Assembly: GCA_019683805.1 (NCBI GenBank)
Contig: JADGHQ010000027.1
Span: 1 to 32,167 of the forward strand
Source: Thermoleophilaceae bacterium
Lineage (GTDB): Bacteria; Actinomycetota; Thermoleophilia; Solirubrobacterales; Thermoleophilaceae
DNA: 32,167 nt
Reading direction: 5' to 3'
Shown here piece by piece: positions 8,636 through 29,211 of this stretch (position 1 is the first letter of the stretch; the number at the start of each line of letters is the position of its first letter). The notes below the pieces were generated by a model. That model saw only the letters and a list, made by a program, of their open reading frames with translations, made no database searches and was not told where the DNA came from. Position numbers and translations under genes: made by a program.

Positions 8636-10278
8636 CGGGGGTCGATCCCCTCCGCCGCCGCGAGCTCGCCCCAGGTCTCGAGCTCACGCTCGCGCCGCTG
8701 CGCGTCCCAGCCCAGCTCGCGCGCGAGCGCGTCCGCGACGGCGCGCGCGCCCGCGCTGTCGGGCCGCGCCAGCTCCGGCGCGGCGAGGATCCCGAGCCGC
8801 GTGCGCCGCAGCAGCACGTCGCCCAGGCGCTGCGCCTGCTCGCGGCGGGCGGCGAAGACCGCCTCGGCGACGAGGTCCGGCAGCTCCGGCACGATCCGCC
8901 GCGCCAGCGCCGGGTCCTCGGCGGCGACGGCGAGCACGTCGTGCGCCGCGTAGCCGTAGCGCGCGGCGAGGTGCGCGCGGCTCGCCTCGTCCACGCCCGG
9001 CACCGCCTTCAGCTCGTCCACCTCGATCGGCAGGCCGAGCGGGATGTCCTGCGTGCGGCAGGGCGCCTCGCGGCCCTCCCGCTCGACCATCCGGTCGACG
9101 GCCATCTTCGCCATTCGCCGCCAGGTGGTGAGCTTGCCGCCCGTGATCGTGAGCAGGCCCGAGCTCGTCTCGTACAGCTCCGCCCGGCGCGAGATGTCCA
9201 CCGACCGCTTCGGGTCGCCGGTCGAGATCAGCGGGCGCACGCCGGCGAACGCGCCGGTGAGGTCGGGCGCCGCGAGCGCCGTGCCGAAGAACGCGTTGCA
9301 GGCGTCGAGCAGGTAGTCGATGTCCTCGGCTGACGGGGGGACGTGATCGAGCGGGCCCTCGTAGTCGTTGTCCGTCGTGCCGACCAGGGTGCGCCCGAGC
9401 CAGGGCAGCGCGAAGATCGTGCGGCCGCCCCCGGCGGGCACGATCGCGCCGTCGACGAGCGGCAGCTTCTCGCGCGGCAGCGTGATGTGGGTCCCGCGGC
9501 TCGGGCGGATGCGCGGGACCTCCTCCTCCGCGTAGAGCTCCTCGGGCCTGATGCGGTCTGCCCACACGCCGGTCGCGTTGATCACGTTGTCGGCGCGCAC
9601 CTCGAGCTCGGCGCCGCCGACCCGGTCGACGCAGCGCACGCCCGCGGCCCGGCCAGCGTCCTCGAGGAGCGCCGTGACCTCGCAGCGGTTCGCCACCACC
9701 GCGCCGAAGCGCTCCGCCTCGCCGAGCACCGTGAGCACGAGGCGGACGTCGTCGGTCTGGCAGTCGTAGAACAGGTAGGCCGAGCTCGGCTCGCGCGCGG
9801 CGAGCGCGGGGATGCGGCGGACGGTCTCCTCGCCGTCGACGATCCGGTGCCGGTCGGGCGTCCAGTCCTCCTCCCCGCCGCGGCGCGCGCGCGGGCGCAG
9901 CCGCTCGGTCGCCATCACGTCGTACATGTTCAGGCCAACGCCCATCACCCGGTCCGGACGGCCGTCGAAGGCGGGCACGAGCAGCGGCAGCGGGCGCACG
10001 AGGTGCGGCGCGAGCTTCACGAGCAGCGCGCGCTCGAGCAGCGCCTCGCGGACGAGCCCGAGGTCGAAGTTCTGCAGGTAGCGCAGCCCGCCGTGGACGA
10101 GCTTCGAGGAGCGGCTCGAGGTGCCGGACGCGAAGTCGTCGCGCTCGACGAGCGCCACGCTGTAGCCGCGCGAGGCCGCGTCGAGCGCCACGCCCGCGCC
10201 GGTGATCCCGCCTCCGACGACCACCACGTCGAAGCGCTCGGAGGCGAGGGCGGCCAGTGCGTCGTCGCGCGCGATCAC
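8632..10278 (-). CDS. glpD: Glycerol-3-phosphate dehydrogenase, FAD-dependent
   Basis: A 548-residue flavoprotein starting at GTG 10276-10278, overlapping the nitroreductase stop as GTGA. The Rossmann motif VVVVGGGITGAGVALDAA lies at about 20-37, followed by the GlpD signature FASGTSSRSSKLVHGGLRYL. Later hallmarks are SRGTHITLP, GTTDNDYEG, AGVRPLIS and TGGKLTTWR, and an alpha-helical C-terminal domain makes up the last 120 residues. It oxidises glycerol 3-phosphate to dihydroxyacetone phosphate at the membrane and passes electrons to quinone. Together with transaldolase and the cDPG enzymes it gives this stretch a triose-phosphate flavour. Confidence 0.93.
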   Translation of the reverse strand: MIARDDALAALASERFDVVVVGGGITGAGVALDAASRGYSVALVERDDFASGTSSRSSKLVHGGLRYLQNFDLGLVREALLERALLVKLAPHLVRPLPLLVPAFDGRPDRVMGVGLNMYDVMATERLRPRARRGGEEDWTPDRHRIVDGEETVRRIPALAAREPSSAYLFYDCQTDDVRLVLTVLGEAERFGAVVANRCEVTALLEDAGRAAGVRCVDRVGGAELEVRADNVINATGVWADRIRPEELYAEEEVPRIRPSRGTHITLPREKLPLVDGAIVPAGGGRTIFALPWLGRTLVGTTDNDYEGPLDHVPPSAEDIDYLLDACNAFFGTALAAPDLTGAFAGVRPLISTGDPKRSVDISRRAELYETSSGLLTITGGKLTTWRRMAKMAVDRMVEREGREAPCRTQDIPLGLPIEVDELKAVPGVDEASRAHLAARYGYAAHDVLAVAAEDPALARRIVPELPDLVAEAVFAARREQAQRLGDVLLRRTRLGILAAPELARPDSAGARAVADALARELGWDAQRRERELETWGELAAAEGIDPR

Positions 10279-10784
10279 TCGAGGTAGGAGACGTAGTCGC
10301 CGGGGGAAGCGCGCTCGGGCACTCGCTGCCGCTGGCGCGGCCGGCCGAGATGCAGGAGGCCCACGAAGCGCTCGTCGTCGCCCATCCCGACGGCCTCTCG
10401 GCCCTCCGGCGTGCGCAGCACGGCGGGCGTGCGCCAGTAGCTCGCTAGGCCGCGCCCGTGGGCGGCGAGCAGGACGATGTAGGCCGCGCACGCGGCGGCC
10501 ATCAGGTCCTCCTCGTCCTGCACGGGGTCGCCCGACTGGACGGCGGAGCAGACGACGAGCGTGGGCGCGCGCTCGAGCTTCGCCGCCGCCTCGGGCCCGG
10601 CCGCCCGCTTCAGCCGCTCGAGCGAGCGCGGCCCGAGCACGCGGAAGCGCCAGGGATTCGTGAGGTGGTGGTTGGGGGCCCAGCGCGCCAGCTCGAGCAG
10701 ATCGTCGAGCGTCTCGCGATCCACGGGCTCAGGACGGTACGCCTTGTGCGTACGGCGGCCGCGGATCGCCCCTTCGAGGTCCAT
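10275..10784 (-). CDS. Nitroreductase-family flavoprotein, YdjA-like
   Basis: A 169-residue protein starting at ATG 10782-10784. It has the N-terminal pattern AIRGRRTHKAYRPEPVDRETL and the WAPNHHLTNPWRF motif typical of the short YdjA-type nitroreductases, with an FMN-site segment SYWRTPAV later. It is an NAD(P)H-dependent flavin reductase of unknown substrate. It starts 35 nt after the cobalamin transporter fusion gene. The nitroreductase fold also includes BluB, which makes the lower ligand of B12, but the APNHHLT pattern and the short length argue against BluB. A TACGTT-like -10 lies just before the ATG, so it may have its own leaderless start. Confidence 0.8.
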   Translation of the reverse strand: MDLEGAIRGRRTHKAYRPEPVDRETLDDLLELARWAPNHHLTNPWRFRVLGPRSLERLKRAAGPEAAAKLERAPTLVVCSAVQSGDPVQDEEDLMAAACAAYIVLLAAHGRGLASYWRTPAVLRTPEGREAVGMGDDERFVGLLHLGRPRQRQRVPERASPGDYVSYLE

Positions 10785-10819: not shown

Positions 10820-12694
10820 TCAGGCCGCGGCGCCGCCCGCGCGCCGGCGACGGCGCAGACCGAGCCAGCCGGCGGCCGCGAGCCCGGCCGCGCCGAGCGC
10901 CGCGCCGCCGATCGCCGGGGCCGACGGGTCGCCCCGCCCGCCCGAGGACGAGCTCGCGCGCCGCTGCGGCGCGGGCGCGGGGGAGCGCTCAGGCGGGCCG
11001 AGCGGCTTGTGCAGCGTCGCGGGCGGGCCGCCGGGGCGCTCGGCGCGGCGGGCGCGGGCCCTCGCCCTCGGGGGCGCCGCCGGCGGGCGCTTCGCCGACG
11101 CGGCCGACGGGGGGCTCTCGCTCCCGGCGAGCCTCGCCTTGCGGCGCTGCGGCACCGGCGCGAGCGGCAGCGGCTTGCGCGCCAACGCCATCAGCGCCTG
11201 CGCCGTCACCCACACCGGCGACTGCGCGCTCGTGCGCGAGTAGCGCACCATGCCGTTGCCGCCCTGCAGCGAGCGCAGGTAGCCGAGCGGCGTGCGCCCG
11301 CCGCGCCGGAAGCGCCCCGGGTCGCGGCCGACCGCGACGAGCCCCTGCACCGCCCACGCGGTGGACTGGGCGTTCGAGGGCCGCCCGCGCATCTGGCCGA
11401 AGCCGCCGTCGGCGTTCTGGACGCGCGCGAGGTAGCGCACCGCCTTCGCGATCGTCGCCCTTCCGCGGCGGGCGGCCGCAAGAGCCTGCAGCACGGCGCC
11501 TGTGTCGTCCACGTCGCTCGTCCCGCCGCGCTCGGCGAACCCGAAGCCGCCGTCCGGGCTCTGCTGGCGCTCGATCCAGCGGGCGGCGCTGCGCACGAGC
11601 GGCGAGCCCGCCGCCACGCCGCCGGCGCGCAGCGCGAGCACCTCGAACGCCGTCTGGTTGACGAGGTTCCCGATCGAGCCGTTCGGGTGCCTGCGCGAGA
11701 CGAGCTCCCGCACGAGGTCGCGGCGCGCGAAGCGGCGCGGGCTCCGGCCGGCGGCGCGCACGAGCAGGATCGTGCGCTCGAGCTCGCCGGCGTCGTTCAG
11801 CGCGCGCGCGGGGCGGGCGGTGAAGTCGAGCGCGGAGCGCTTGCCGCGGCGGACGCCCGCGGGGTTCACCCCGCCGGCCGCGAGGCCGAGGCCCGCCCAG
11901 CCCGTGTAGAGCTGCGACGAGCCCGCGCGCGGCGCCGGCCCGAAGCCGCCGTCCGCGTTCTGGGCACGCTCGAGGTAGCCGACCGCACGCTTGGGCGCCG
12001 GGACGGCCGCGCCGGCGCCCGGCGCCGCTTCCCCGCCGAGGGCCGCGGCGAGCGCGAGCACGAGGCACGCCGCCGCTCCCGCAGGCGCCGCCCAGCGCAC
12101 CTCGAGGCGCCGGCGGTAGCGGCGCAGCGAGCGCACGAACGCCGGGCCGAGCAGCACGGCGAAGACGGCGTTCCCCGCGGCGTGGGCGATGTTGTAGGCG
12201 AGCGAGGTGCCGGAGATCGCGGCGTAGGTGGCGGCGTCCTGCCGCGCCGCGAGCGTCCACTGGTAGAGGTCCATCAGCGCCCCGAACGCCAGGCCGGCGA
12301 GCGCGCACGCCGCCGCGAGCGCGAAGCGGCCGGGCACGCGGCCGCCGGTCGCGCGCGCGAGCGCCGCGCCGCCGACCCCGACGGCGCCCCACGCCGCCAT
12401 CTGCCACGGGGTCCACGGCCCCTGCCCGAAGAAGAGGTTCGAGACGAGCGCCGCCGTCGCGCCCACGGCGAACCCGGGCGCCCCGCCGAGCGCGAAGCCC
12501 GAGAACAGCACGACGTCGGTGGTGGGCTTGACGTTCGGCAGGGCGGCGAACGCGATCCGGCCGACCACGGCGAGCGCGGCCAGCGACGCCACCAGCGCGA
12601 GCACCTTCGCCTGCGGTCGCGAGCGCTCGTACCAGCCGAACCCGGCCGCGAGCGCCGCCCCGAGCACGAGCGCCGATCCAAGCTCCCAGCTCAT
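10820..12694 (-). CDS. ECF S component fused to alpha/alpha toroid domain
   Basis: A 624-residue fusion; ATG 12692-12694 overlaps the EcfA stop as ATGA. Residues 1-195 form a membrane protein of about six helices with NVKPTTDVVLFSGFALGG and SNLFFGQGPWTPWQMAAWG, resembling substrate-binding S components linked to cobalamin. A further hydrophobic segment (202-220) leads to an external region (about 232-505). That region carries repeated QNADGGFG or QSPDGGFG motifs of the squalene-cyclase/prenyltransferase alpha/alpha-toroid type, the fold used by the B12-binding alpha domain of intrinsic factor and transcobalamin. A Pro/Arg/Ser-rich linker (510-590) and a last membrane helix (about 594-613) followed by RRRRR anchor the C-terminus. 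Topology places the toroid outside, next to the S component. Direct B12 binding is inferred from the fold and from the riboswitch-controlled operon. Confidence 0.85.
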   Translation of the reverse strand: MSWELGSALVLGAALAAGFGWYERSRPQAKVLALVASLAALAVVGRIAFAALPNVKPTTDVVLFSGFALGGAPGFAVGATAALVSNLFFGQGPWTPWQMAAWGAVGVGGAALARATGGRVPGRFALAAACALAGLAFGALMDLYQWTLAARQDAATYAAISGTSLAYNIAHAAGNAVFAVLLGPAFVRSLRRYRRRLEVRWAAPAGAAACLVLALAAALGGEAAPGAGAAVPAPKRAVGYLERAQNADGGFGPAPRAGSSQLYTGWAGLGLAAGGVNPAGVRRGKRSALDFTARPARALNDAGELERTILLVRAAGRSPRRFARRDLVRELVSRRHPNGSIGNLVNQTAFEVLALRAGGVAAGSPLVRSAARWIERQQSPDGGFGFAERGGTSDVDDTGAVLQALAAARRGRATIAKAVRYLARVQNADGGFGQMRGRPSNAQSTAWAVQGLVAVGRDPGRFRRGGRTPLGYLRSLQGGNGMVRYSRTSAQSPVWVTAQALMALARKPLPLAPVPQRRKARLAGSESPPSAASAKRPPAAPPRARARARRAERPGGPPATLHKPLGPPERSPAPAPQRRASSSSGGRGDPSAPAIGGAALGAAGLAAAGWLGLRRRRRAGGAAA

Positions 12695-14286
12695 CTCACA
12701 AGCTCCCTCCCGAGGATCTCCAAGCCCTCCTCCGGGGTGAGCGCGCCGCCCGCGCCCCCGAGCACGCGCGCCACCTCCGTCGCGAAGTACCAGCCGCCTG
12801 AGAGCACCTCGGCCGGCGTGCCGTCGGCGATCACCTCGCCCTCGCCCAGCAGCACCACGCGGTCGGCGAAGCGCGCGGCGAACTCGCTGTCGTGCGTCGC
12901 GACGATCACCGCGCTGCCCGCGGCGGCGACCCGGCCGAGCCGCTCGGCGAGCGCGGACTTCCAGGCGCGGTCCATCCCGCGTGTGGGCTCGTCGAGGCAG
13001 AGCACGGCGGGCTCGCCCGCGGCGAGGACGATCTCGAGCGCGAGGCGCTGGCGCTCGCCGCCCGAGAGGTCGCGCGGGCTCGCGCCGCCGCGCCCCTCGA
13101 GACCGGCCGCCGCGAGCGCGTCGGCGCCCGCCTCCTGGTCGACGCGCTCGTGGACGAGGTAGTCGCCCGGCGTCTGCAGCAGCAGCGCCACCTCGCCCGC
13201 GCGCTCGATCCGCCCCCGCGTGGGCTCCGCAAGGCCCTTCAGGTGCCGGAGCAGGGTGCTCTTGCCCGCGCCGTTGCGGCCCATCAGCGCGACGCGCTCG
13301 CCCGCCTCGAGGCGCAGGCTCACCCCGCGCAGCACCGCTCCCCCGCTGCGCAGCTCGTGCCAGACGCCGCGCAGCTCGGCCGCGGGCGGCGGCCCCCCGC
13401 GCCGGCGCGACCTCCCGGGCCGAGCGCCCTGCGGGCCGCCGTCTGCGCCGCCCGGCGCGAGCCCCGCGCCCTCGAGCCGCGAGCGCGCCTGCTTGACCGA
13501 GGCGGGCAGCGGGCGCAGCCCCGCGAGCGAGAACATGCGGGCGGCGGGCGTCGCGAGCGCCGGCCGCTCCTCGACGGCCCAGGCGAGGAAATCCTCGGGC
13601 GCGGCGTCGCAGGCCAGCCGGCCGCGGTCGAGCGCGATCACCCGGTCGGCGGCCGAGAGGCAGCGCTCCAGCCGATGCTCGGCGATCACGACCGTGGTGG
13701 CGAAGTCCTCGTTCAGGCGCCGCAGCAGCCAGAGCAGCTCGTCGCCTGCCACCGGGTCGAGCTGGGAGGTCGGCTCGTCGAGCAGCAGCAGCGACGGCCG
13801 GTGCGCGACCGCCGCGGCGAGCGCCACCCGCTGCAGCTCGCCGCCGCTGAGCGTGTCGACGCGGCGGTCGAGCAGGTGGGCGATCCCGAGCGCGAGCGCC
13901 GCCTCCTCGACCGCGCGAGCGACCGCCGCGAGGGGCTCGCCGCGGTGCTCGAGCGCGAGCGCGATCTCGGCGCGCACCCCGCCCATCACGACCTGCGTCT
14001 CGGGATCCTGGAAGACGGTGCCGCACACCCGCGCGAGCTCGCGCGGGCCGTGGTCGCGCAGCGACATGCCCGCCACCTCGAAGCGCCCGGACGCCTCGCC
14101 GCCGTGGAAGTGCGGCACGAGCCCGCAGGCGGCGCGCAGGAGCGTCGACTTGCCGCTGCCCGACTCGCCCGCGAGCACGACGAAGCTGCCCGGCTCGATC
14201 GCGAGCGAGATGTCGCGCAGCACGGGCGCCGCCGCGTCGGGATAGCGGTAGCCGAAGCCCTCGGCGAGCAGGATCGGCTCAGGCAC
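12691..14286 (-). CDS. ecfA: ECF transporter ATPase, two ABC domains fused
   Basis: A 531-residue protein with GTG 14284-14286, overlapping the EcfT stop by 8 nt. Two complete ABC modules are present. The first has Walker A GESGSGKST (about 41-49), signature LSGGELQRV and Walker B LLLLDEPTSQLD. The second has GRNGAGKST, LSGGERQRL and VLCLDEPTRGMD. A basic, Pro/Gly-rich linker joins them. It replaces the separate EcfA1 and EcfA2 subunits and powers the importer formed with EcfT and the S component. The following fusion gene starts within its stop codon, so subunit stoichiometry is probably set by coupling. Confidence 0.93.
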   Translation of the reverse strand: MPEPILLAEGFGYRYPDAAAPVLRDISLAIEPGSFVVLAGESGSGKSTLLRAACGLVPHFHGGEASGRFEVAGMSLRDHGPRELARVCGTVFQDPETQVVMGGVRAEIALALEHRGEPLAAVARAVEEAALALGIAHLLDRRVDTLSGGELQRVALAAAVAHRPSLLLLDEPTSQLDPVAGDELLWLLRRLNEDFATTVVIAEHRLERCLSAADRVIALDRGRLACDAAPEDFLAWAVEERPALATPAARMFSLAGLRPLPASVKQARSRLEGAGLAPGGADGGPQGARPGRSRRRGGPPPAAELRGVWHELRSGGAVLRGVSLRLEAGERVALMGRNGAGKSTLLRHLKGLAEPTRGRIERAGEVALLLQTPGDYLVHERVDQEAGADALAAAGLEGRGGASPRDLSGGERQRLALEIVLAAGEPAVLCLDEPTRGMDRAWKSALAERLGRVAAAGSAVIVATHDSEFAARFADRVVLLGEGEVIADGTPAEVLSGGWYFATEVARVLGGAGGALTPEEGLEILGRELVR

Positions 14287-15160
14287 GGGCCACCCCCAGC
14301 CGCGCGCCGGGCGCCGCGAACGGCAGCGCCGCCGCGAGCGCGAGCGCCGCTGCGAGCCCGGCCTCGGCGGCGCCGGCGTCGAGCGAGGTCGTGGGATACG
14401 GGGCGAAGCCGGCCGCCCCGGCCGCCCTGGCAGCGATCGCGAGCGCGGCGATCGCCGCCGCGGCCGCGAGAAACGCGAGGTCGTGGCGCGACCAGGGGCG
14501 CCGCGTGCGCGCCGGCCTGCGCGCGCCCGCGTAGCCGCGTACCTCGAGCGCGGCGGCGAGGTCGAGCGAGCGCTCCAGCGCGCCGCCGAGCGCGGCCCGC
14601 ACGAGCTCGACCCGGCCCGGCGGGCTCGGCCGGCAGCGGGCCGCGTCGCTCATGCGCGCCGCGTCGCGCGCGAGCAGCGGCACGAGCCGGCAGGCGAGCG
14701 CCGCGGTGAGCGCCGAGCGGTAGCCGAAGCGGCGCAGCGAGCGGACGATCTCGTCCGGGTCGACAGCCGCCGAGAACAGCCCGCAGACCGCGACGAGCGC
14801 GACGATCCGCAGCGCGGCGGCGCCGCCCGCGGCGAGCGCCTCGAGCGTCACGTCGTAGCGGCGGCCGAGGAAGCTGCCGAGCCGCGCGATCACCGTCGCG
14901 CCGCCCTGCGACACGAGCGCGTTCACCGCGACGATCAGCAGCGCGAGCGGCAGCGCGACCCACGCGGCGCGCGCGAGCTCGCGGCCTGCGCGCGCGCCGA
15001 CCGCGGCGACCACGGTGGCGGCGAGCGCGCCGCCCAGCACGAGCGGGTTCTCGTAGAGGAGCGCGACGAGCGCGAGCGAGGCGCAGAACGCGCCCGACGC
15101 GCCGGCGCGCGCCGCGTGCATCGGCGTCGCGCGGGGCCGGTAGACGGGCACGACGCTCAC
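14279..15160 (-). CDS. ecfT: ECF transporter transmembrane T component
   Basis: A 293-residue membrane protein starting at GTG 15158-15160, overlapping the lipoprotein stop as GTGA. Several hydrophobic helices cover about residues 20-150 and the last 60 residues. Between them lie the coupling-helix motifs of EcfT: CRLVPLLARDAARMSDA and the A-x-RG signature ALEVRGY. It links the ATPases to the S component. Translation would run directly from the DUF4430 lipoprotein gene into this one, which ties the exported proteins to the transporter. Confidence 0.9.
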   Translation of the reverse strand: MSVVPVYRPRATPMHAARAGASGAFCASLALVALLYENPLVLGGALAATVVAAVGARAGRELARAAWVALPLALLIVAVNALVSQGGATVIARLGSFLGRRYDVTLEALAAGGAAALRIVALVAVCGLFSAAVDPDEIVRSLRRFGYRSALTAALACRLVPLLARDAARMSDAARCRPSPPGRVELVRAALGGALERSLDLAAALEVRGYAGARRPARTRRPWSRHDLAFLAAAAAIAALAIAARAAGAAGFAPYPTTSLDAGAAEAGLAAALALAAALPFAAPGARLGVARA

Positions 15161-16104
15161 CGTCCGCCTCCCGCGCGCAGCGGCAGCCGCTCGAGGCCGG
15201 AGGGCGTGACGGCGACCGCGAAGGCGTTCGCGAGCTTCGACCGCTCGAGGGCGTCCACGGCCCGCGCCACCCCGGCGTCGTCCACGCCGGTGATCAGCCA
15301 CGTGGCGCTCTCGCCGGGCGTCTCCGTCGCAGCCACGAGCCCCGTCCCCGGCGGCGCCGCGCGGACCGGGTCGCCGTGCGGATCGAGCAGCTCGAGCCTC
15401 GTGCCGCTGCCGTCGAAGCGGGCGAAGACACCGCTTGCGCGCGGGCCGCGCTCGAGCAGGGCGGCGGCGGTGACCTTGTCGACGATCTCCGAGGCCCGCC
15501 CCACGACCACGCGCAGCACCGCGCCGCCCGAGCCGACCCCGATGTCGGCTGGCGCAACCTCGACCCCCGCGTCCGCGAGCCTGCGCTGCGCCGCCATGCA
15601 CGGGTCCGACGACGGCTGAGCGCACTCGACCCGCACTGGAAGCCGCTTGCCGTTCTCGCCGTGCACGAACGGCTCGGGGTACGCGCCCACGATCGCCGGC
15701 ACCCGCATCGCGCCGCTCCAGTCGCGGTAGTCCCACTGCACGACGTCGCCCGGGTGCAGCTTGCGGTCGGCCGCGCCGGTCGAGGCCTCGATCCCGTTGA
15801 CGAAGTAGAACCAGTCGCGCCGGCCGCCCGGGCCCGCACCCGAGAGGCCGTCGACCGACTGGACGAAGCCGCCGCCGTAGCGCGTCGTGACCTTGTGTCC
15901 GCGCGCCAGCAGGCGCATGACGGTGTCCGACTCGCGGACCTCGCTCACCCGCAGCGGCCTGCCGAGCCGCTGCTGGCCGAAGTCGCGCGTGACGGTCAGC
16001 TCGACGGCGCCCGAGCGCGCCTTGCCGGGCCCGACGCCGCAGCCCGCGAGCGCCGCCGCCAGCACGGCCGCCGCCACTAGTCCGATCGCGCGGCGCGGGG
16101 CCAT
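15157..16104 (-). CDS. DUF4430-domain lipoprotein
   Basis: A 315-residue protein starting at ATG 16102-16104, one nt after the previous stop. A signal peptide ends in the lipobox L-A-G-C with Cys22, so it should be a lipid-anchored surface protein. Residues about 32-135 match the DUF4430 fold family: VTRDFGQQRL, SDTVMRLLA, GGGFVQSVDGL, RRDWFYFVNGIEA and HPGDVVQWDYRDW. This fold is also the beta domain of intrinsic factor and transcobalamin. The rest (140-315) is a soluble region with two Cys in its first part and no family I recognise. Behind a cobalamin riboswitch and in front of ecfT, it is a strong candidate B12-capture protein. Confidence 0.85.
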   Translation of the reverse strand: MAPRRAIGLVAAAVLAAALAGCGVGPGKARSGAVELTVTRDFGQQRLGRPLRVSEVRESDTVMRLLARGHKVTTRYGGGFVQSVDGLSGAGPGGRRDWFYFVNGIEASTGAADRKLHPGDVVQWDYRDWSGAMRVPAIVGAYPEPFVHGENGKRLPVRVECAQPSSDPCMAAQRRLADAGVEVAPADIGVGSGGAVLRVVVGRASEIVDKVTAAALLERGPRASGVFARFDGSGTRLELLDPHGDPVRAAPPGTGLVAATETPGESATWLITGVDDAGVARAVDALERSKLANAFAVAVTPSGLERLPLRAGGGR

Positions 16105-16105
16105 G

Positions 16106-16852
16106 TCAGCGCACCACCGCCCTCTCGGGGAACGAGCGGATCTGCCCCCGCGCCTCCGCCCAGACGGTGTAGCGGCCGGGCGCGAGCGTGAGGCGTGCGG
16201 CGCCGTCCGCGCCGGTCATGGCGGTCGTGGCGCCCACGTGCACGGTCGCGCCCGCGGCCGGTGCGCCGCGGCCCTCGTCGTCGTAGCTGCGCACCGTGAC
16301 GACGAGCGCGCCGCCGCCCTGCGCTGCGAGCCTGACGGCGAGCGTGCGCTCGCAGCCGCCGCGCCGGTCGAGGTGGCAGAAGAACCACAGCACGCGCGCC
16401 CCCGCCCGCAGCCGCCCACTGCCGAACGGGCCAGCGGGGTCGGCGGCCCCGGCGGTTCCCTGCCGGTTGCCGACCTTGTAGACCCAGCCCGCCCTGCCGC
16501 GCGCGCGGTCGGGCCCGATCTGCCGCACGTAGAGCCCGCCCGCGCTGCGGGCGCTGCGGCCGCAGGAGCCGTAGTCGCGGAGCCCGACCCTCGCGACGCG
16601 GCTGCGGAGCAGCGCCGCGAGCGGCGTGGCCGCGGGCACCGCGCAGCGCCTGCGGCCGACCCTGGCGCGGGCCGCCGCGGCCCGCACCGTCCTCACCTTC
16701 GCCGCGCCGCTCGCGAGCACGACCATCTGCTCGACGGCGGGCGCGCGCGCCGCCCCCGCGGACGGCGGGCGCCCGCCCGCAGGCGCGGCCGCGACCAGCG
16801 CGACCAGCGCCGCCGCGGCTCCGAGGCGTGCTGCGCGCCCGCCCGCGGTCAT
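16106..16852 (-). CDS. Secreted DUF4430-like protein with Ig-like tail
   Basis: A 248-residue protein; ATG 16850-16852 overlaps the previous stop as ATGA. A signal peptide spans about residues 1-30. The middle region (about 50-175) has the layout of a divergent DUF4430 domain: GLYVRQIGPD, GWVYKVGNRQG and GARVLWFFCHLD. It also has several Cys (RRRCAVP, YGSCGRS, FFCHLDRRGGC) that could form disulfides. The last 65 residues look like a carboxypeptidase-regulatory or Ig-like beta domain (PAAGATVHVG, GAARLTLAPGRYTVWA). Export and the Cys pairs suggest function outside the membrane, probably in cobalamin capture with its neighbours. The DUF4430 call is weaker here than for the two flanking proteins. 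Confidence 0.7.
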   Translation of the reverse strand: MTAGGRAARLGAAAALVALVAAAPAGGRPPSAGAARAPAVEQMVVLASGAAKVRTVRAAAARARVGRRRCAVPAATPLAALLRSRVARVGLRDYGSCGRSARSAGGLYVRQIGPDRARGRAGWVYKVGNRQGTAGAADPAGPFGSGRLRAGARVLWFFCHLDRRGGCERTLAVRLAAQGGGALVVTVRSYDDEGRGAPAAGATVHVGATTAMTGADGAARLTLAPGRYTVWAEARGQIRSFPERAVVR

Positions 16853-17958
16853 CGCGTCACCCGGAAGTCGATCCGCTCGCGGGCGGCGTTGAAGGAGGTG
16901 TCGATCGCCTTGGTCTCGAGCACGTAGCGCCCACGCGGCAGCCTGTCGGGCAGGAGGTACGACCAGCTCGCCTGCTTGCCGAGCCGCACGAAGCGCGCGT
17001 GGGCGCAGTGACCGGGGCGCGTGAAGCGGTCGGCCCGGCCGCTGTACCAGCGGCAGCCGCCGGCGGCGTAGAGGCGCAGGCGGAAGTAGACCCCGTAGAG
17101 CGCGACGTCGTCGGAGGCCCGGCCGCGCAGCACGCGCGGTCCGCGCGCGTAGCGCGCCCCGTCGCGCGGCGAGGCGATCGCGGCGGTGGGCGCCGTGGAG
17201 TCGTGCGCCTGGCCGCCTCCCTGGCCGTCCTCGCCGCTCGAGGGCGCCGTGCCGCACGCGCCGCTGCCGGGCGCGTAGACGCAGACGGCGAGAGCGTTCG
17301 AGCGCACGGAGCTCGGCTCCTCGGCCTTGAGCGTCTCGACGCCCGGGGCGGCGAAGCTCAGCGTCGCGTCGCCGGAGCCGTTCGTGGTGGCGCCCCCAAC
17401 GGTGGCGCCCGCCACCGGCGAGCCGTTCTGGCCGTCGACCACGTGGACCGTGATCGCCTCGCCGATCGCGGCCTTCGCAGGCCCCGAGAGCTTCAGCAGG
17501 TGGCTCTTGTTGAAGAAGTCGTAGGCGAAGAGGACCTCGTCCCCGTCCCTGACCTGCTGCTGGCAGCCGCCGACCGCCGACGGTGTGTAGTTGAGGGCGT
17601 AGCCCCAGTAGCGGTTGTTCGCGGTGTCGCTCGAGTCGGGGCCGATCCGGTCGATGCCGAAGTCGCCGAACCCGAACCAGGTGCCGTCCCAGGTGAAGCC
17701 GTGCTGGATCGAGGCGTCGTCGAGCGCGGTCGTCATGGTCGGCCCGGGCGTCGGGTTGGCGCCGCCGTTCGTGCCGTCGCAGGGGTGCGGTCCGGTGCCG
17801 TCCTTGGTGAGTTGCTTCGCGTCGGTCGTGACCGGGCCCTCGTAGATCGTCTGCGTCAGGCCCTCGACACGCAGGTTCACGGTGACGGGCGCGGCGGCGG
17901 CGGCCGGCGCGGCGGTCAGAGCGATGAGGGTCCCGAGGACCCACGGGCTTCGAATCAT
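16849..17958 (-). CDS. Secreted DUF4430-like protein with two Ig-like domains
   Basis: A 369-residue protein, first gene of the cobalamin operon. ATG 17956-17958 is preceded at 8 nt by a strong GGGGAGG (17967-17973). A signal peptide spans about 1-23. The N-terminal domain (24-155) is DUF4430-like: VTVNLRVEGLTQTIYEG, NNRYWGYALNYTPSAVGGC, and VRDGDEVLFAYDFF. It carries a likely disulfide between Cys near 61 and 133. Residues about 160-235 resemble an Ig-like repeat (SPVAGATVGGATTNGSGDATL), then comes a low-complexity Gly/Ser linker. The C-terminal Ig-like domain has two further Cys. No anchor is visible, so it is released or wall-associated. Position directly under the riboswitch ties it to vitamin B12. 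Confidence 0.78.
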   Translation of the reverse strand: MIRSPWVLGTLIALTAAPAAAAAPVTVNLRVEGLTQTIYEGPVTTDAKQLTKDGTGPHPCDGTNGGANPTPGPTMTTALDDASIQHGFTWDGTWFGFGDFGIDRIGPDSSDTANNRYWGYALNYTPSAVGGCQQQVRDGDEVLFAYDFFNKSHLLKLSGPAKAAIGEAITVHVVDGQNGSPVAGATVGGATTNGSGDATLSFAAPGVETLKAEEPSSVRSNALAVCVYAPGSGACGTAPSSGEDGQGGGQAHDSTAPTAAIASPRDGARYARGPRVLRGRASDDVALYGVYFRLRLYAAGGCRWYSGRADRFTRPGHCAHARFVRLGKQASWSYLLPDRLPRGRYVLETKAIDTSFNAARERIDFRVTR

Positions 17959-17966
17959 CGTATGAG

Positions 17967-17986
17967 CCTCCCCTTTCCGCGAGGGA
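17967..17986 (-). promoter_or_regulatory. Ribosome site in a possible riboswitch-controlled hairpin
   Basis: The Shine-Dalgarno GGGGAGG (17973 to 17967 on the minus strand) can pair with an upstream TCCCT (17986-17982): five base pairs including one G-T, with an 8-nt loop. It lies between the riboswitch and the ATG. This fits a translational expression platform in which cobalamin binding hides the ribosome site. No T-rich terminator is present in this leader. Confidence 0.5.
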
Positions 17987-17997
17987 TTCGTGGCTTG

Positions 17998-18147
17998 CGG
18001 TCGGGCAGGTCTCCTGGCTTCCGGCTTGCCGTCGCCGCGCCTTCCCAGGAGCGATGGGCCGCTCCCAGTGGCCTCGTGCGGCGGGCCTATCCGGTTACAG
18101 TGGCGGGTCCGCGCCGGACTCTCACCGGCTTCCCTTCACCCGAACCG
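17998..18147 (-). ncRNA. Cobalamin riboswitch
   Basis: The minus-strand leader shows the full set of conserved segments in order: GGTTCGGGTGAAGGGAAGC, CCGGTGAGAGTCCGG, CCGCCACTGTAA, GCCACTGGG, GGGAAGGC and GCAAGCCGGAAGCC. These are followed by the B12 box AAGCCAGGAGACCTGCC at 18020-18004. The ends CGGTTCGGG and CCCGACCG pair as the closing P1 stem. It senses cobalamin, most likely adenosylcobalamin from the long form with peripheral elements, and should switch off the downstream uptake genes when the vitamin is plentiful. A -10-like TATGCT (18166-18161) sits just upstream, giving a start close to the aptamer 5' end. Confidence 0.96.
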
Positions 18148-18267
18148 TATGGACGGCCGAAGCATACAGCGGGGTGCAGGCGGCAAGGCGGGGCGGGCGA
18201 AAGCGCTGCAAAGCGGGCCGTTCGGGCGCGGCCGCGCGGCTCCATGGGCCGGCGCCGGCCGGTTCGC

Positions 18268-18286: not shown

Positions 18287-18359
18287 GCCGCCATCGTCTA
18301 GGGGACTAGGACGCCGCCCTCTCACGGCGGAAACCGGGGTTCGAATCCCCGTGGCGGTA
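18287..18359 (+). tRNA. tRNA-Glu (CTC)
   Basis: A 73-nt cloverleaf without encoded CCA. The acceptor arms GCCGCCA (18287-18293) and TGGCGGT (18352-18358) pair with a terminal G-T. The anticodon stem CCGCC/GGCGG encloses the loop CTCTCAC, with anticodon CTC at 18321-18323 (Glu, GAG codons). The T arm is CGGGG-TTCGAAT-CCCCG, and the discriminator is A18359. The 3' part from within the T loop is the target of the integrated element downstream. Confidence 0.96.
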
Positions 18360-23549: not shown

Positions 23550-24554
23550 CTAGTGCCCGACCAGCGCCCGCAGCGACTGCCTCAGGGACCCGGCCGTCTT
23601 CAGCACCGCCGTCGGCTCGTACCCGCAGTGCGCCATGCAGTTCTCGCAGCGCGGGTCCTTGCCGCGGCCGTACTTCGACCAGTCGGTCGTCTCGATCAGC
23701 TCCTTGTAGGTCTTGGCGTAGCCGTCGGCCATCAGGTAGCAGGGGCGCTGCCAGCCGAACAGCGAGTAGCTCGGGATGCCCCACGGCGTGCACTCGTAGT
23801 CGACCTTGCCCTCGAGGAAGTCGAGGAACAGCGGCGAGTGGTTGAGCCGCCACTTCTTCCGCCGTCCGCCGGCGAACGCCTGCGAGAAGAGCTCGCGCGT
23901 CTGCTTCACGCCGAGGAAGTGCTCCTGGTCGGGCGCCTTCTCGTACGCGTAGGCGGGCGAGATCATCATCAAGTCGACCTCGAGCTCGTCGTTGAGGAAG
24001 TCGAGCACCCGGCGCACGTTCTCCGGCGTGTCGTGCGTGAAGAAGGTGGTGTTGGTGGTCACCCGGAAGCCCCTCTCCTTCGCCACCTCGATCGCGCGCA
24101 CCGCCTTGTCGAACACCCCCGGGCGGCAGACCGACTCGTCGTGGCGCTCGCGCAGGCCGTCGATGTGGATCGCCCACGAGAAGTACGGCGAGGGCTCGAA
24201 GTTGTCGATCTTCTTCTCGAGCAGCAGCGCGTTCGTGCACAGGTAGACGAACTTCTTGCGCTTCACGAGCTCGTCCACGATCACGTGAATCTCGGGGTGG
24301 ATGAGCGGCTCGCCGCCTGCGATCGAGACCATCGGGGCGCCGCACTCCTCGATCGCCGCCACCGCCTGCTCGACCGGCATCCGCCGCTTGAGCACGTGGT
24401 CGGGGTGCTGGATCTTGCCGCAGCCGGCGCAGGCGAGGTTGCACTGGAACAGCGGCTCGAGCTCGACGATGAGCGGGTACTTCTCACGCCCCTTGAGCTT
24501 CTGGCGCAGGATGTAGCTGCCCACCTTGAGCGTCTGGCGCAGTGAAACGGGCAT
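23550..24554 (-). CDS. hpnH: HpnH, adenosyl-hopene transferase (radical SAM)
   Basis: A 334-residue radical SAM enzyme; ATG 24552-24554 is 6 nt after the HpnG-IspH stop. The cluster motif is CNLACAGC (Cys38, 42, 45), with the SAM-binding segment [13 protein letters not shown] after it. A Cys-rich C-terminal part ([24 protein letters not shown]) is typical of HpnH. It adds 5'-deoxyadenosine to diploptene or hopene, giving adenosylhopane, the first step of C35 hopanoid side-chain formation. It is last in the hopanoid operon, and its substrate comes from the cyclase at the operon start. Confidence 0.95.
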
Positions 24555-24560
24555 CGCGGG

Positions 24561-26102
24561 TCAGCCTCTCTTTCCTGATTCCGGAGGGAGCTTGAAGCGG
24601 ATCGACTCCTCGCGCACGTTGCGCTCCTCGACCTCCACGGGGCCGAGGCCGCTCAGCGCGCCGAGCACGCGCTGCACGAGGCGCTCGGGCGCGGACGCGC
24701 CGGCGGTGAGGCCGACGGTCTCCGCGCGCGCGAGCCACTCGGGGTCGATGTCGCGCTCGTCGTCGATCAGCCGCGCCGGGCATCCGGCCCGCTCGGCCAC
24801 CTCGACGAGCCGGTTCGAGTTCGAGGAGTTGGCGGACCCGATCACGAGGATCAGGTCGCACTCCTGCGCGAGCGCCTTCACCGCGTCCTGGCGGTTCTGG
24901 GTCGCGTAGCAGATGTCGTCCGAGCGCGGGCCGACGAGCTTCGGGAAGCGCGTGCGCAGCCGCTCGACCACGCGGTTCGTCTCGTCGACCGCGAGCGTCG
25001 TCTGGGTGAGGTAGGCGACCCTGTCGGGATCCTCCACCTCCAGCCCCTCGACGTCGGCCGCGTCCTCGACGATCTCGATCGAGTCGGGCGCCTCGCCGTG
25101 GGTCCCCTCGACCTCCTCGTGGCCCTCGTGGCCGACGAGCACGATCGTGTAGCCGCGCTCGGCGAAGCGACGCGCCTCCGCGTGCACCTTCGCGACGAGC
25201 GGGCAGGTCGCGTCGATGACGTGCATCCCGCGCGCGCTCGCGTGAGCGCGCACCGCCGGCGACACCCCGTGCGCCGAGAAGACCACGGTCGAGCCCTGTG
25301 GCACCTCGTCGAGCTCGTCCACGAACACCGCGCCGCGGCGCTCGAGATCGGCGACGACGTGGGCGTTGTGGACGATCTGCTTGCGCACGTACACGGGCGG
25401 CCCGTGCTGCTCGAGCGCGCGCTCCACGATCTCGATCGCGCGCTCCACGCCCGCGCAGGAGGCGCGCGGGCTCGCGAGCACGACCTTGCGGGGCCGGATC
25501 GACGCGGCCCAGCGGTCGAGCGCGCGCGACGCCCGCACGAGCGAGCGGTAGGCGCGCACGCCGCCGCGCACCGTCGCGAGCGCGTCGGAAAGCTCGCGCG
25601 TGGGCGTGTCGACCACCGAGCGCAGCACGGCGAGCGGGCGGTCGTTGGCGGCCGCGGCGAGCCAGGCGGACTCCATGTCCACCGCGATCGCGCCGGTCGC
25701 GCGCAGCTCCTCGCGCTCGGCCCCGTGCACGAGGTGCGGGCTCGACCAGATCGGGCCGGTGCGCACGCGCAGCCCCTCGCGCGCGAGCACGCCCGCGAGG
25801 AGCCCTGCCGACGGCAGCTCGACCACCCCTTCGGGCGAGCGGATCTCGGTGGCGAGCACGAGGTCGCCCGGCTCGAGCTCCGGGTCGAGCGCGCCGCAGA
25901 AGCCCGCGACCGCGATCGCTGCGGCAGCCGCCTCGAGCGCCCGCTTCGAGGCCTCCTCCGCGCGCTCCTGCCCCATGCCGGTGCGGACGACGCGCGCCTC
26001 GCGCACGCCGGAGCGCACCGCGCGCGCCTCGAGCGCGAGCGGCGCGAGCACGAGCAGCCCGTCGTCGCGCGGCTTGGCCGAGGACTCCCGCAGCGAGATC
26101 AC
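24561..26102 (-). CDS. hpnG-ispH: HpnG nucleosidase fused to IspH reductase
   Basis: A 513-residue bifunctional protein; GTG 26100-26102 overlaps the hpnE stop as GTGA. Residues 1-190 form a nucleoside-phosphorylase-like domain ([20 protein letters not shown] and [12 protein letters not shown]), matching HpnG, which removes adenine from adenosylhopane. Residues 204-513 are IspH. It has the three cluster Cys at 216 (SCAGVE), 300 (ATCPLV) and 398 ([10 protein letters not shown]), with spacing close to E. coli IspH. It also has IVHN (His245), GHEEVEGT (His328, Glu330) and SSNSNRL. IspH makes IPP and DMAPP from HMBPP. The frame is continuous with no stop or likely internal start between the parts. 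Both activities serve hopanoid formation, at precursor and side-chain level. Confidence 0.9.
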
Positions 26103-27454
26103 GCGACCACCTCCGCCGCGGCGCGCGGCCGCTCGAGCGCCTCGAGCGCGACGCGCGCGGCCGCGTGGCCGCTGCGCACGGCGCCCTCCATCGTGGCCGG
26201 CCAGCCGGTCGCGGTCCAGGCACCGGCGAGGACGAGGCCGGGCAGCCGCGTGCGCGGGCCGGGCCGCAGCGCCGCCTGCCCGGGCGCGGCGCGGAAGGTG
26301 GCGGCGTGCTCGCGCGTGGCGAACAGCCGCTCGACCCGGGCCTCGCGGGCGCGCGGGAAGAGCTCCGCCAGGGCCGGCAGGTAGCGCTCGCGAAGGCGCT
26401 CGGGCGCCTCCTCCATCTCGGCCTCGGCGCCCGAGAGCGACACGACCAGGTACTGGCCGTCGCCGACGTCCGCTCCGCGCGTGCGGTCGAACACGAACTG
26501 CACCGGCGAGCGCACGCCGGCCGCGAAGGAGTGTTCCATCACCCGGCGGTCGTACACAACGTGGATGTTGACGATCGGCGAGCTTCCGAGCGCGCGCAGC
26601 CGCTCCGCGCCGCCGTCGACCGCGCCCTCCGGCAGCAGCGCGGCGGCGCGCTCGTTCGGCAGCGCGACGACGACGGCGTCCGCCGCGAGCCGCTCCCCGC
26701 CCGCCTCGACCGCGAAGCCGCCCGCGCCTTCGCTGCGCACCGCCTCGACCCGGCAGCGCGTCCGCACCTCCACGCCCGCCCGCGCGAGCGCCCGCTCGGC
26801 GGGGTCGCCGTGGATCCTCTGGAGGGGCACCGCCGCCCAGCCGATGTCGGCGGCGTCGCGCTCGCGCAGCAGCCCGGTCTGGAACACGAACGCCGCGAGC
26901 GCGAGCGACGCCTCGGCCGCCGGTACGTTGAGCGTCGGCAGTGCGATCAGGTCCCAGAGCGCCTCCACAGCGCGCTCGCTCTGGCCGTGCGCGCCGAGCC
27001 ACTCGCCGAAGGTCAGGCGGTCGGCGCCGGGATCGTCGGGATCGACCCGCCGCAGCGCGAGCGCGCAGCGCGTCGCGGACAGGCGCTCGGCAGGCGTCAG
27101 GTGCGGGTAGCGCGCGAGCGCGCCCGCGAGGTGGAGCGGCGCGGGAAGGTCGCTGCGCTCGAGCCGGCCCTCGACGCCCCCGGGAGCGACCACGGGGATC
27201 GACAGGCGCGGCTGCAGCTCGGTGAGGCCCGCGCTGCCGAGCCGCTCGAGCAGGGCGCGGTACTGCGTGCAGCAGCGCAGGAAGACGTGCTGCCCGTTGT
27301 CGATCGTCATCCCGTCGCGCTCGAACGAGTAGGCCGCGCCGCCGAGCCGCGGCCGCACCTCGAGCAGCGTCACCTGCGCGCCCGCGTCGGCGAGGTCGAG
27401 CGCCGCGGCGATGCCGGCGAGCCCACCCCCCGCGATCGCCACCCGCCCGCTCAT
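26099..27454 (-). CDS. hpnE: HpnE, squalene-associated FAD-dependent desaturase
   Basis: A 451-residue flavoprotein; ATG 27452-27454 overlaps the hpnD stop as ATGA. The N-terminal dinucleotide fold is [21 protein letters not shown], followed by [20 protein letters not shown], characteristic of HpnE, and a C-terminal [24 protein letters not shown] segment closes the FAD site. It reduces hydroxysqualene from HpnC to squalene. It is third in the three-step HpnD, HpnC, HpnE route that replaces squalene synthase in many bacteria. Confidence 0.93.
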
Positions 27455-28332
27455 GCGCGCGCTCCGTGTCCGAGTGCCCTGGCGCCCGACGACAGCGCGC
27501 TGCCGGTCATGCTGCCGGCCGCCACCCACGCCTTCTCCCAGACGGGCAGCGAGATCCGGCCCCGCATCGCCTCGGCGGGCCGCTCCTCGATGCGGTCGAG
27601 GATGCGCCGGTAGATCCCGGCCATCGCCGACACGCACGAGGCGCTGCGCATGTCGAGCAGCGGCAGGAGCGCCAGCCCGCGGTCGAACCACTCTCGCGCG
27701 CGCGCGGCCTCGAAGCGCACGAGCCGGGCGCTCGCGAGCGGGTCGCCGCCGTTGCCGGGCTCGCTCACGCCGAAGCGGCGCAGATCCTCCGCCGGGAGGT
27801 ACACGCGCCCGCGCGCGCGGTCCTCGCGCAAGTCGCGCAGGATGTTCGTGATCTGCATCGCCACCCCGAGGTCGTCCGCGAGCGGCATCGCGCGCTCGAG
27901 GTCGCTCGCCCCGAAGATCGCGAGCGACAGGCGGCCGATCGACCCGGCCACGCGGCGGCAGTAGACCACGAGCTCGTCGAAGCTCTCGTAGCGGGTGCCG
28001 CGCACGTCCATCTCGACGCCGTCGATCAGGTCGCCGAACGCCTCGCGCGGGAACGGGAAGCGCCCGGCCGCCCATCCCAGCGCGGCGATCACGGGGTCGG
28101 CCGAGCCCGGCCCCAGCCGCGCGAGCGCCTCCCGCTCGGCCGCGAGCAGGCGCAGCTTCTCGGCGTCGGCGAGCGAGCCGTCGCCGATGTCGTCGACGCG
28201 GCGGGCGAAAGCGTAGACCGCGTACATCGCGCGGCGCTTGTCGGACGGGAGCAGCCTGATGCCGTAGTAGAAGTTCTCGGCCTCCCGCCTGGTGATCTCC
28301 TCGCAGTGCCTGTAGGCGGCGCGCTCGTCCAC
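27451..28332 (-). CDS. hpnD: HpnD, presqualene diphosphate synthase
   Basis: A 293-residue prenyl-condensing enzyme, starting at GTG 28330-28332, 2 nt after the hpnC stop. It has the first Asp-rich motif RRVDDIGDG after [19 protein letters not shown]. The second is in [22 protein letters not shown], and [13 protein letters not shown] lies between. These are features of the HpnD branch. It joins two farnesyl diphosphates to presqualene diphosphate. The absence of a reductase domain and the presence of hpnC and hpnE fit the three-enzyme route. Confidence 0.92.
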
Positions 28333-28334
28333 GC

Positions 28335-29210
28335 TCAGCCTCCCCGAACGAGGGTGGTGAGGAGCGATGCGAGCCGCCGCGCGCGCGAGGGACGCGGCGT
28401 GCCGGAGAGAACGTCGTAGCCTGCGCGCTCGATCGCGCCGAGTGCGGAGCGCCCGCCGGCCACGAACGCGGCCACGGCGAGCGCCGGCCGCCCGCGGAGC
28501 GTGCGGATCAGCGGCGCGCCCTGCGAGAGCAGCGCCCGCGCGCGCGCCACCTCGAGCTCCATCAGCTCGCGGAACGCGGGCGTGGCGCGCCCCGAGGCGA
28601 GATCGTCGCGCGTCACGCCGAAGCGCTCCATGTCCTCCTCCGGCAGGTACACCCGCCCGCGGGCGAGGTCCTCGGCGACGTCCTGCCAGTGCTCGGTGAG
28701 CTGGAGCCCGCTGCAGACGGCGTCGGAGAGGCGCACGCGCTCGTCGTCCGCCGCGCCGAAGACGTGCAGCACGATCTCGCCGACCGGGTTGGCCGAGAGC
28801 TCGCAGTACGCCATCAGCTCGTCGATCGTGCGGTAGGAGCCGACGCGCTGGTCCTGGCGGTTCGCCTCGATCAGGCGGCGGAACGGTCCCGCGGGGATCG
28901 AGAGCTCGCGCACCGTGGCCGCGAGCCTGCGCATCAGCGGATGCTCCGGCTCGCCGTCGTAGACACGCTCGAGGTCGGCCTCGAGCCAGTCGAGCAGCGC
29001 GAGGCGATCGCCCTGCGCCTCGTCGCCCACGTCGTCCACGAGACGCGCGAACCCGTAGACCGCGAGCAGGTGCTCGCGCTCCCGCCGCGGGAGCAGCCGG
29101 CTCGCCACCGGGAAGTTCTCGGCGCCCGCCTGCGCGAGCACCGCCGCTGCGGCAGGCATGGCGGGCCGAGTGTTGAAGTGGTGCAGCTCCGCAGCCCGCA
29201 TTCCGCCCAC
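28335..29210 (-). CDS. hpnC: HpnC, hydroxysqualene synthase
   Basis: A 291-residue protein with GTG 29208-29210 one nt after the shc stop; ATG 29199-29201 is an alternative start. The HpnC hallmark ENFPVASRLLPRREREHLLA is followed by ARLVDDVGDEA. Further on come YCELSANPVGEIVLHVFG and the second Asp-containing motif [18 protein letters not shown]. It converts presqualene diphosphate from HpnD to hydroxysqualene with water. It is paralogous to hpnD, its downstream neighbour. Confidence 0.92.
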   Translation of the reverse strand: MGGMRAAELHHFNTRPAMPAAAAVLAQAGAENFPVASRLLPRREREHLLAVYGFARLVDDVGDEAQGDRLALLDWLEADLERVYDGEPEHPLMRRLAATVRELSIPAGPFRRLIEANRQDQRVGSYRTIDELMAYCELSANPVGEIVLHVFGAADDERVRLSDAVCSGLQLTEHWQDVAEDLARGRVYLPEEDMERFGVTRDDLASGRATPAFRELMELEVARARALLSQGAPLIRTLRGRPALAVAAFVAGGRSALGAIERAGYDVLSGTPRPSRARRLASLLTTLVRGG

Positions 29211-29211
29211 C

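What the first reader, a model, noticed from the sequence alone, without database searches (positions are those of the whole stretch)
10820..18147. Split, intrinsic-factor-like cobalamin capture and import system
Seen: a cobalamin riboswitch heads six tightly coupled genes. They encode three exported proteins with DUF4430 or DUF4430-like domains (one a lipoprotein), EcfT, a fused double EcfA, and an S component fused to an alpha/alpha toroid. Known: animal intrinsic factor and transcobalamin bind B12 between an alpha6/alpha6 toroid and a DUF4430-type beta domain, and ECF importers such as ECF-CbrT carry cobalamin. Inference: this operon is a bacterial machine using the same two half-sites, with the toroid tethered on the transporter and the DUF4430 halves supplied as surface or secreted proteins that could hand over B12.
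Basis: partly seen in the sequence, partly recalled or inferred. Interest (0 to 1): 0.92.

Follow-up and report, generated by a model that had tools for sequence, protein, structure and literature searches.

The report
Split bacterial vitamin B12 importer
A soil-type actinobacterium that needs vitamin B12 but appears unable to make it carries a B12-controlled operon that splits the two domains of our own B12-carrier proteins between surface proteins and the importer itself; such operons were predicted in 2007, but the version with one domain fused to the importer seems new.

Summary
A cobalamin riboswitch (RF00174, 90 bits) heads six overlapping or abutting genes. The transporter is a dedicated ECF importer whose S component matches CbrT, the solved cobalamin S component (E 3e-14), and no other solved S component. 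The lipoprotein's first domain has the fold of the beta domain of haptocorrin, transcobalamin and intrinsic factor (Z 11-13). The C-terminal half of the S protein is an alpha6/alpha6 toroid, placed outside the cell by an extra helix. The genome (2.56 Mb, 95% complete) has one cobalamin riboswitch, no BtuC, too few corrin methylases, five B12-binding proteins and a class II ribonucleotide reductase. In its order, 44 of 46 DUF4430-bearing genomes have the riboswitch upstream.

So B12/corrinoid capture and import is well supported. That toroid and DUF4430 form one site and hand B12 over is plausible but unproven: the toroid is closer in fold to terpene cyclases, and some relatives lack it. The general idea is not new: Burroughs et al. 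2007 (PMC1796856) described DUF4430-type domains, toroid fusions and CbiO/CbiQ operons as B12 scavengers. What looks new is the S-toroid fusion (28 rows, one clade), tied here to riboswitch, CbrT and auxotrophy.

The parts
17987..18176 (-). Cobalamin riboswitch aptamer (RF00174), 28 nt before the first start codon; a Shine-Dalgarno-like AAAGGGGAGG lies between, so translational control is likely (inference)
   Evidence: 90.1 bits; sequence read; the only RF00174 match in the genome
16849..17958 (-). Exported protein, 369 aa: signal peptide, borderline DUF4430, Ig-like C-terminal region
   Evidence: DUF4430 in 14 of 23 members of the joint P0001/P0002 alignment
16106..16852 (-). Exported protein, 248 aa, DUF4430-like by relatives' profiles only; CarboxypepD_reg-like C-terminal region
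15157..16104 (-). Lipoprotein (lipobox LAGC, C22), aa 28-130 = transcobalamin/intrinsic-factor beta-domain fold (DUF4430); aa 137-309 = BcsB / GH67-GH115 N-domain-like
14279..15160 (-). EcfT (CbiQ family) transmembrane energy-coupling subunit
12691..14286 (-). Fused EcfA-EcfA' ATPase, two ABC domains with Walker A (GESGSGKST, GRNGAGKST) and LSGGE signatures
10820..12694 (-). CbrT-like S component (aa ~25-200) + extra transmembrane helix (aa ~202-220) + alpha6/alpha6 toroid (aa ~229-507) + disordered linker and weak hydrophobic C-terminus

Best explanation
This is a corrinoid (vitamin B12) capture-and-import system, switched off by intracellular B12 through the riboswitch. Shown by sequence or structure comparison: a dedicated group I ECF transporter (EcfT, fused EcfA-EcfA', CbrT-type S component), a surface lipoprotein with a transcobalamin-type beta-grasp domain, one or two further exported DUF4430-type proteins, and a toroid fused to the S component through an extra transmembrane helix. 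Inferred: B12 is caught outside the membrane by the DUF4430 protein(s), in relatives with a toroid probably between DUF4430 and toroid as in intrinsic factor. It is then passed to the S component directly below, which topples and is reset by ATP hydrolysis as in ECF-CbrT. Rough confidence by step: corrinoid import 0.93; DUF4430 proteins bind the corrinoid 0.75; toroid takes part in corrinoid binding 0.6; toroid and DUF4430 of different chains form one shared site 0.45.
For: RF00174 at 90 bits, the only one in the genome. S part hits CbrT 6FNP at E 3e-14 for the single sequence and 1.2e-21 for the family profile; no other S component appears; 6FNP is the cobalamin/cobinamide transporter ECF-CbrT (PMC5997447). 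Lipoprotein model pLDDT 92.5; best Foldseek hits are transcobalamin beta domain, then haptocorrin and intrinsic factor; VIA Z 11.4-13.1 over 93-99 residues. Toroid modelled at pLDDT ~95; intrinsic factor chain Z 21.6, 232 residues, 2.8 A. B12 need: five PF02310 matches above cut-off, NrdJ 602 bits. No synthesis: two TP_methylases only, no CobQ-class GATase_3 match. No BtuC/FecCD. Order survey: 44 of 46 DUF4430 genomes have RF00174 within 5 kb upstream on the same strand. Across phyla, riboswitch on 45 of 51 operons with room upstream. A transmembrane helix follows the S part in the window and in 13 of 13 fused relatives checked.
Against: No binding or transport data. Toroid closer in fold and sequence to terpene cyclases than to intrinsic factor. 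Toroid missing in L047, L043, L072, L080, of which L047 keeps the riboswitch, so it is not essential. Second exported protein has no direct DUF4430 match. Relative placement of S part and toroid is not resolved (pTM 0.58). DUF4430 also occurs in the Lactococcus lactis control genome, so the domain alone does not prove B12.
Confidence: 0.75

Rival explanations
1. The operon imports B12, but the toroid is not a B12 half-site: it is a structural scaffold or docking platform that holds DUF4430 proteins or the cell wall near the transporter.
For: Toroid absent in some relatives with the same operon core; linkers are long and disordered; toroid nearer to cyclases than to intrinsic factor.
Against: Polar residues on the inner-helix starts are nearly invariant in the fused family (N441, S444, T348, D396/T398, W266, W495, T497), which suggests a ligand surface; in Clostridia the toroid sits in one chain with DUF4430 as in transcobalamin.
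Confidence: 0.3
2. The toroid is an enzyme, a membrane-tethered class II terpene cyclase, with only a coincidental link to transport.
For: Best sequence and fold matches are squalene-hopene cyclase and drimenyl diphosphate synthase; the window's copy has an intact DVDD motif at aa 394-397; single-toroid cyclases exist (MstE, 8PAK); a hopanoid cluster lies 5 kb away.
Against: DxDD is intact in only 14 of 26 fused relatives and 10 of 40 toroids of the wider set, while operon and riboswitch persist; the extra helix puts the toroid outside the cell, away from the isoprenoid pool (inference); its partner genes are transport genes in every locus.
Confidence: 0.06
3. The transported substrate is a related molecule: cobinamide or another corrinoid precursor rather than complete cobalamin.
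For: CbrT carries both cobalamin and cobinamide; auxotrophs often salvage precursors; a cobalamin riboswitch would regulate either.
Against: None decisive; salvage genes (CobU, CobS, CobT) were not searched for.
Confidence: 0.15
4. A cobalt or nickel importer of the CbiMNQO type feeding corrin synthesis.
For: EcfT is annotated CbiQ and the ATPase resembles CbiO.
Against: No CbiM; the S part matches CbrT instead; the genome lacks corrin synthesis enzymes; metal importers need no large exported capture proteins.
Confidence: 0.02

Closest known systems
Transcobalamin-like SLBB (DUF4430) operons with CbiO/CbiQ genes and SLBB-toroid fusions, Burroughs et al. 2007 (PMC1796856)
   Same: Exported DUF4430-type proteins, often two per operon, alpha/alpha toroid partner, ECF ATPase and EcfT genes, predicted B12 scavenging in organisms lacking B12 synthesis.
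   Different: That paper describes toroid and SLBB fused in one secreted protein; here they are on different chains and the toroid is fused to the S component. The word riboswitch does not occur in its text, and it does not mention CbrT, whose transport was shown later (2018).
ECF-CbrT of Lactobacillus delbrueckii (6FNP, PMC5997447)
   Same: S component of the same family, EcfT and two EcfA domains, expected cobalamin/cobinamide transport.
   Different: ECF-CbrT is group II (shared ECF module) without exported capture proteins or toroid; here all parts are in one operon and the two ATPases are fused.
Intrinsic factor, transcobalamin, haptocorrin
   Same: Toroid fold and beta-domain fold.
   Different: Animal proteins carry both domains in one soluble chain taken up by receptor endocytosis; here separate chains and an ATP-driven importer.
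BtuBFCD
   Same: Riboswitch-controlled B12 uptake by an ATP-driven importer.
   Different: No FecCD/BtuC protein in this genome.
NCBIfam SCO2321 family membrane protein (NF053823)
   Same: Toroid region matches at 93 bits.
   Different: Far below the family cut-off of 300 bits; not a member by that test.

Membership tests
Dedicated (group I) ECF transporter, CbrT type | EcfT subunit encoded | tested here: met
   CbiQ 59.9 bits, cut-off 25
Dedicated (group I) ECF transporter, CbrT type | Two ATPase domains with Walker A and signature motifs | tested here: met
   two ABC_tran domains; motifs read
Dedicated (group I) ECF transporter, CbrT type | S component homologous to CbrT rather than to other S components | tested here: met
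   6FNP E 3.2e-14, next hit E 0.76; profile E 1.2e-21
Dedicated (group I) ECF transporter, CbrT type | Cobalamin binding and transport | not testable with these tools
   needs protein
Cobalamin riboswitch RF00174 | Covariance model match above gathering score | tested here: met
   90.1 bits, cut-off 31.5, full model length
DUF4430 / transcobalamin-like SLBB domain | Lipoprotein: sequence above cut-off and beta-domain fold | tested here: met
   47.1 bits, cut-off 23.8; Z 11.4-13.1 to TC/HC/IF
DUF4430 / transcobalamin-like SLBB domain | First exported protein: sequence above cut-off | tested here: inconclusive
   20.6 bits, 23.9, cut-off 23.8; relatives reach 39 bits
DUF4430 / transcobalamin-like SLBB domain | Second exported protein: sequence above cut-off | tested here: not met
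   no DUF4430 match; related through intermediate sequences only
Intrinsic factor / transcobalamin family proper | Toroid and beta domain in one chain | tested here: not met
   separate chains in the window
Intrinsic factor / transcobalamin family proper | alpha6/alpha6 toroid fold | tested here: met
   12 helices at high pLDDT; 2pmv Z 21.6, 2.8 A, 232 residues; the fold is shared with cyclases
Intrinsic factor / transcobalamin family proper | Conserved B12-contact residues | not tested
   no residue-level structural alignment was available
Class II terpene cyclase / squalene-hopene cyclase | Conserved DxDD catalytic motif in the family | tested here: not met
   present in the window, but in 14/26 fused and 10/40 of all toroids tested; only D396 and T398 are invariant in the fused set
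BtuFCD-type importer | FecCD/BtuC permease in the genome | tested here: not met
   no match in G000, family found in 13 of 14 controls
NCBIfam SCO2321 family | Score above cut-off | tested here: not met
   93 of 300 bits

The most novel reading that the evidence does not exclude
A transcobalamin split in trans: the toroid is a permanent membrane-tethered half-site above the importer's mouth, and a diffusible or lipid-anchored DUF4430 protein brings B12 as the other half. Closing of the two halves and release into the CbrT-type S component would be coupled to its toppling, a capture-and-handover route not known to me for any ECF transporter.
Probability: 0.4. Interest if true: 0.85.

Novelty: new variant of a known kind. 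Interest (0 to 1): 0.62.

Why it matters
ECF importers are described as working without separate capture proteins, and the origin of animal intrinsic factor is thought to lie in bacterial proteins of this kind. A system whose two B12-carrier domains are divided between surface proteins and the importer makes it possible to test how each half contributes, how B12 could be handed to an S component, and which arrangement came first. It also points to the B12 uptake route of a large group of soil actinobacteria, many of which appear to be auxotrophs.

Tried and rejected
Sequence profiles of the lipoprotein, the toroids and toroid-DUF4430 proteins of Clostridia did not list any transcobalamin or intrinsic factor among the shown PDB matches; the link rests on fold comparison. 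Literature searches for the Streptomyces SCO2321-SCO2325 genes, for DUF4430 with cobalamin and for CbrT gave no paper on such a fusion. A BluB role for the downstream nitroreductase was rejected (33.7 bits against a cut-off of 150). Anti-correlation of DUF4430 with B12 synthesis in the order is weak (Fisher p 0.037) and rests on my sorting of GATase_3 scores by hand, so it is not used as main evidence. CbiMNQO cobalt import considered and rejected.
Full report
WHAT IS THERE. On the - strand a cobalamin riboswitch (17987-18176, RF00174, 90.1 bits, full model) stands 28 nt before the first of six genes, with a Shine-Dalgarno-like sequence between. The genes overlap by 4-8 nt or lie 1 nt apart, so they are almost certainly one transcription unit. 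In order: a 369-aa exported protein, a 248-aa exported protein, a 315-aa lipoprotein, EcfT, a double EcfA, and a 624-aa S component-toroid protein.

TRANSPORTER. The S part (aa 25-196) matches chain A of 6FNP at E 3.2e-14; the next PDB match has E 0.76. The family profile gives E 1.2e-21, and no other S component appears. 6FNP is ECF-CbrT, shown to bind and transport cobalamin and cobinamide (PMC5997447). EcfT and both ATPase domains are intact in sequence and encoded alongside, so this is a dedicated ECF transporter.

TOPOLOGY. Known S components have a cytosolic C-terminus (established knowledge). In this protein RRYRRR follows the S part, then a hydrophobic helix at aa 202-220, then the toroid. 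The same extra helix follows the S part in 13 of 13 fused relatives examined. The simplest reading is that this helix carries the chain out of the cell, so that the toroid sits outside, above the S component. A C-terminal hydrophobic stretch is present in some relatives and is weak here. The topology is an inference.

DUF4430 PROTEINS. The lipoprotein was modelled from 32 relatives at pLDDT 92.5. Its best PDB matches are the beta domain of transcobalamin (5NO0, 2BB5), with haptocorrin and intrinsic factor close behind. VIA-align gives Z 11.4-13.1 over 93-99 residues of aa 21-130, and all top 15 rows are these proteins or the bacterial structure 3U7Z. Its second domain (aa 137-309) resembles BcsB and the N-terminal domains of GH67, GH115 and GH84 enzymes (Z up to 11.3). 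The lipobox cysteine is nearly invariant. The first exported protein is borderline for DUF4430, but 14 of 23 members of the joint alignment with the second protein match. The second exported protein is DUF4430-like only through intermediates; its assignment stays open.

TOROID. Twelve helices at pLDDT ~95. Fold matches: squalene-hopene cyclase Z 27.3, intrinsic factor Z 21.6. Fold alone therefore cannot say B12 binder or cyclase. The catalytic DxDD motif is intact in the window but in only 14 of 26 fused relatives and 10 of 40 toroids of the wider set, while the riboswitch and transporter genes stay. That argues against cyclase activity as the conserved function. Near-invariant polar residues on the inner helices (D396, T398, N441, S444, T348) are compatible with ligand binding; no residue was mapped to a B12 contact.

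GENOME CONTEXT. The genome (2.56 Mb, 95% complete) has five proteins with a B12-binding domain above cut-off and a class II ribonucleotide reductase at 602 bits. It has only two TP_methylase proteins, too few for the corrin ring, no CobQ-class GATase_3 match, and no FecCD permease. This riboswitch is its only one. The organism thus appears to need B12, to be unable to make it, and to have this operon as its only recognised importer. A 5% incompleteness is the caveat.

RELATIVES. One scan of genome contigs gave 80 loci. Among 59 loci of 12 kb or more, 58 have EcfT, 59 EcfA, 56 a DUF4430-type protein and 55 a toroid beside the S gene. A cobalamin riboswitch precedes 45 of 51 operons with room upstream. 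In the order, 44 of 46 DUF4430-bearing genomes have it within 5 kb upstream on the same strand. In Clostridia and Bacilli the toroid is fused to DUF4430 in one large exported protein, often with a second toroid gene beside the S gene. In Ca. Solincola-type Actinomycetota toroid and S component are neighbouring separate genes. In the Solirubrobacterales group they are fused. On an S-component tree all 28 fused rows fall in one supported set of 33 rows, needing two changes, e.g. one gain and one loss. A fusion of neighbouring genes once, with a later loss in L047/L049, is the simplest history. L047 and L049 keep the DUF4430 genes, transporter and riboswitch without a toroid in the sequence held (L049 is a short contig), so the toroid may help but is not essential.

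WHAT WAS KNOWN. Burroughs et al. 2007 (PMC1796856) defined the transcobalamin-like SLBB clade, noted bacterial SLBB-toroid fusions and operons with CbiO and CbiQ genes in organisms lacking B12 synthesis, proposed B12 scavenging, and suggested transfer to animals. I found no description of the S component-toroid fusion; most subscription literature is not in the searched library.

VERDICT. Corrinoid import: very likely. DUF4430 proteins as capture proteins: likely. Toroid as second half of one binding site, supplied in trans: plausible, not shown. New variant of a known kind, of real interest because it is directly testable.

Noticed in passing
window 23550-31104 (-): Hopanoid cluster: squalene-hopene cyclase, two squalene/phytoene synthase family genes, an amine oxidoreductase, LytB, and HpnH (543 bits).
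   Followed up: partly
window 10275-10784 (-): Nitroreductase-family gene starting 36 nt after the S-toroid gene; also directly downstream in L017 and L055; not BluB by score.
   Followed up: partly
window 15157-15700 (-), lipoprotein aa 137-309: Conserved second domain resembling BcsB and the N-terminal domains of glycoside hydrolases; role unknown, possibly cell-wall glycan contact.
   Followed up: partly
L047 8986-9657, L049 4386-5135: Members of the fused clade without a toroid but with the rest of the operon and a cobalamin riboswitch.
   Followed up: partly
L090 (Latilactobacillus curvatus plasmid CP117684.1): A mobilizable plasmid carries LPXTG protein, DUF4430 protein, EcfT, fused EcfA and a related S component as one cluster.
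   Followed up: no
L056, L080: Thermoplasmatota archaea carry DUF4430, EcfT, EcfA and a CbrT-like S component without a toroid in the stretch seen.
   Followed up: no
L012: A contig labelled Chlamydiae bacterium holds the fused actinobacterial-type operon; probably mis-binned.
   Followed up: no
window 18287-18359 (+): tRNA gene divergent from the riboswitch, about 110 nt away.
   Followed up: no
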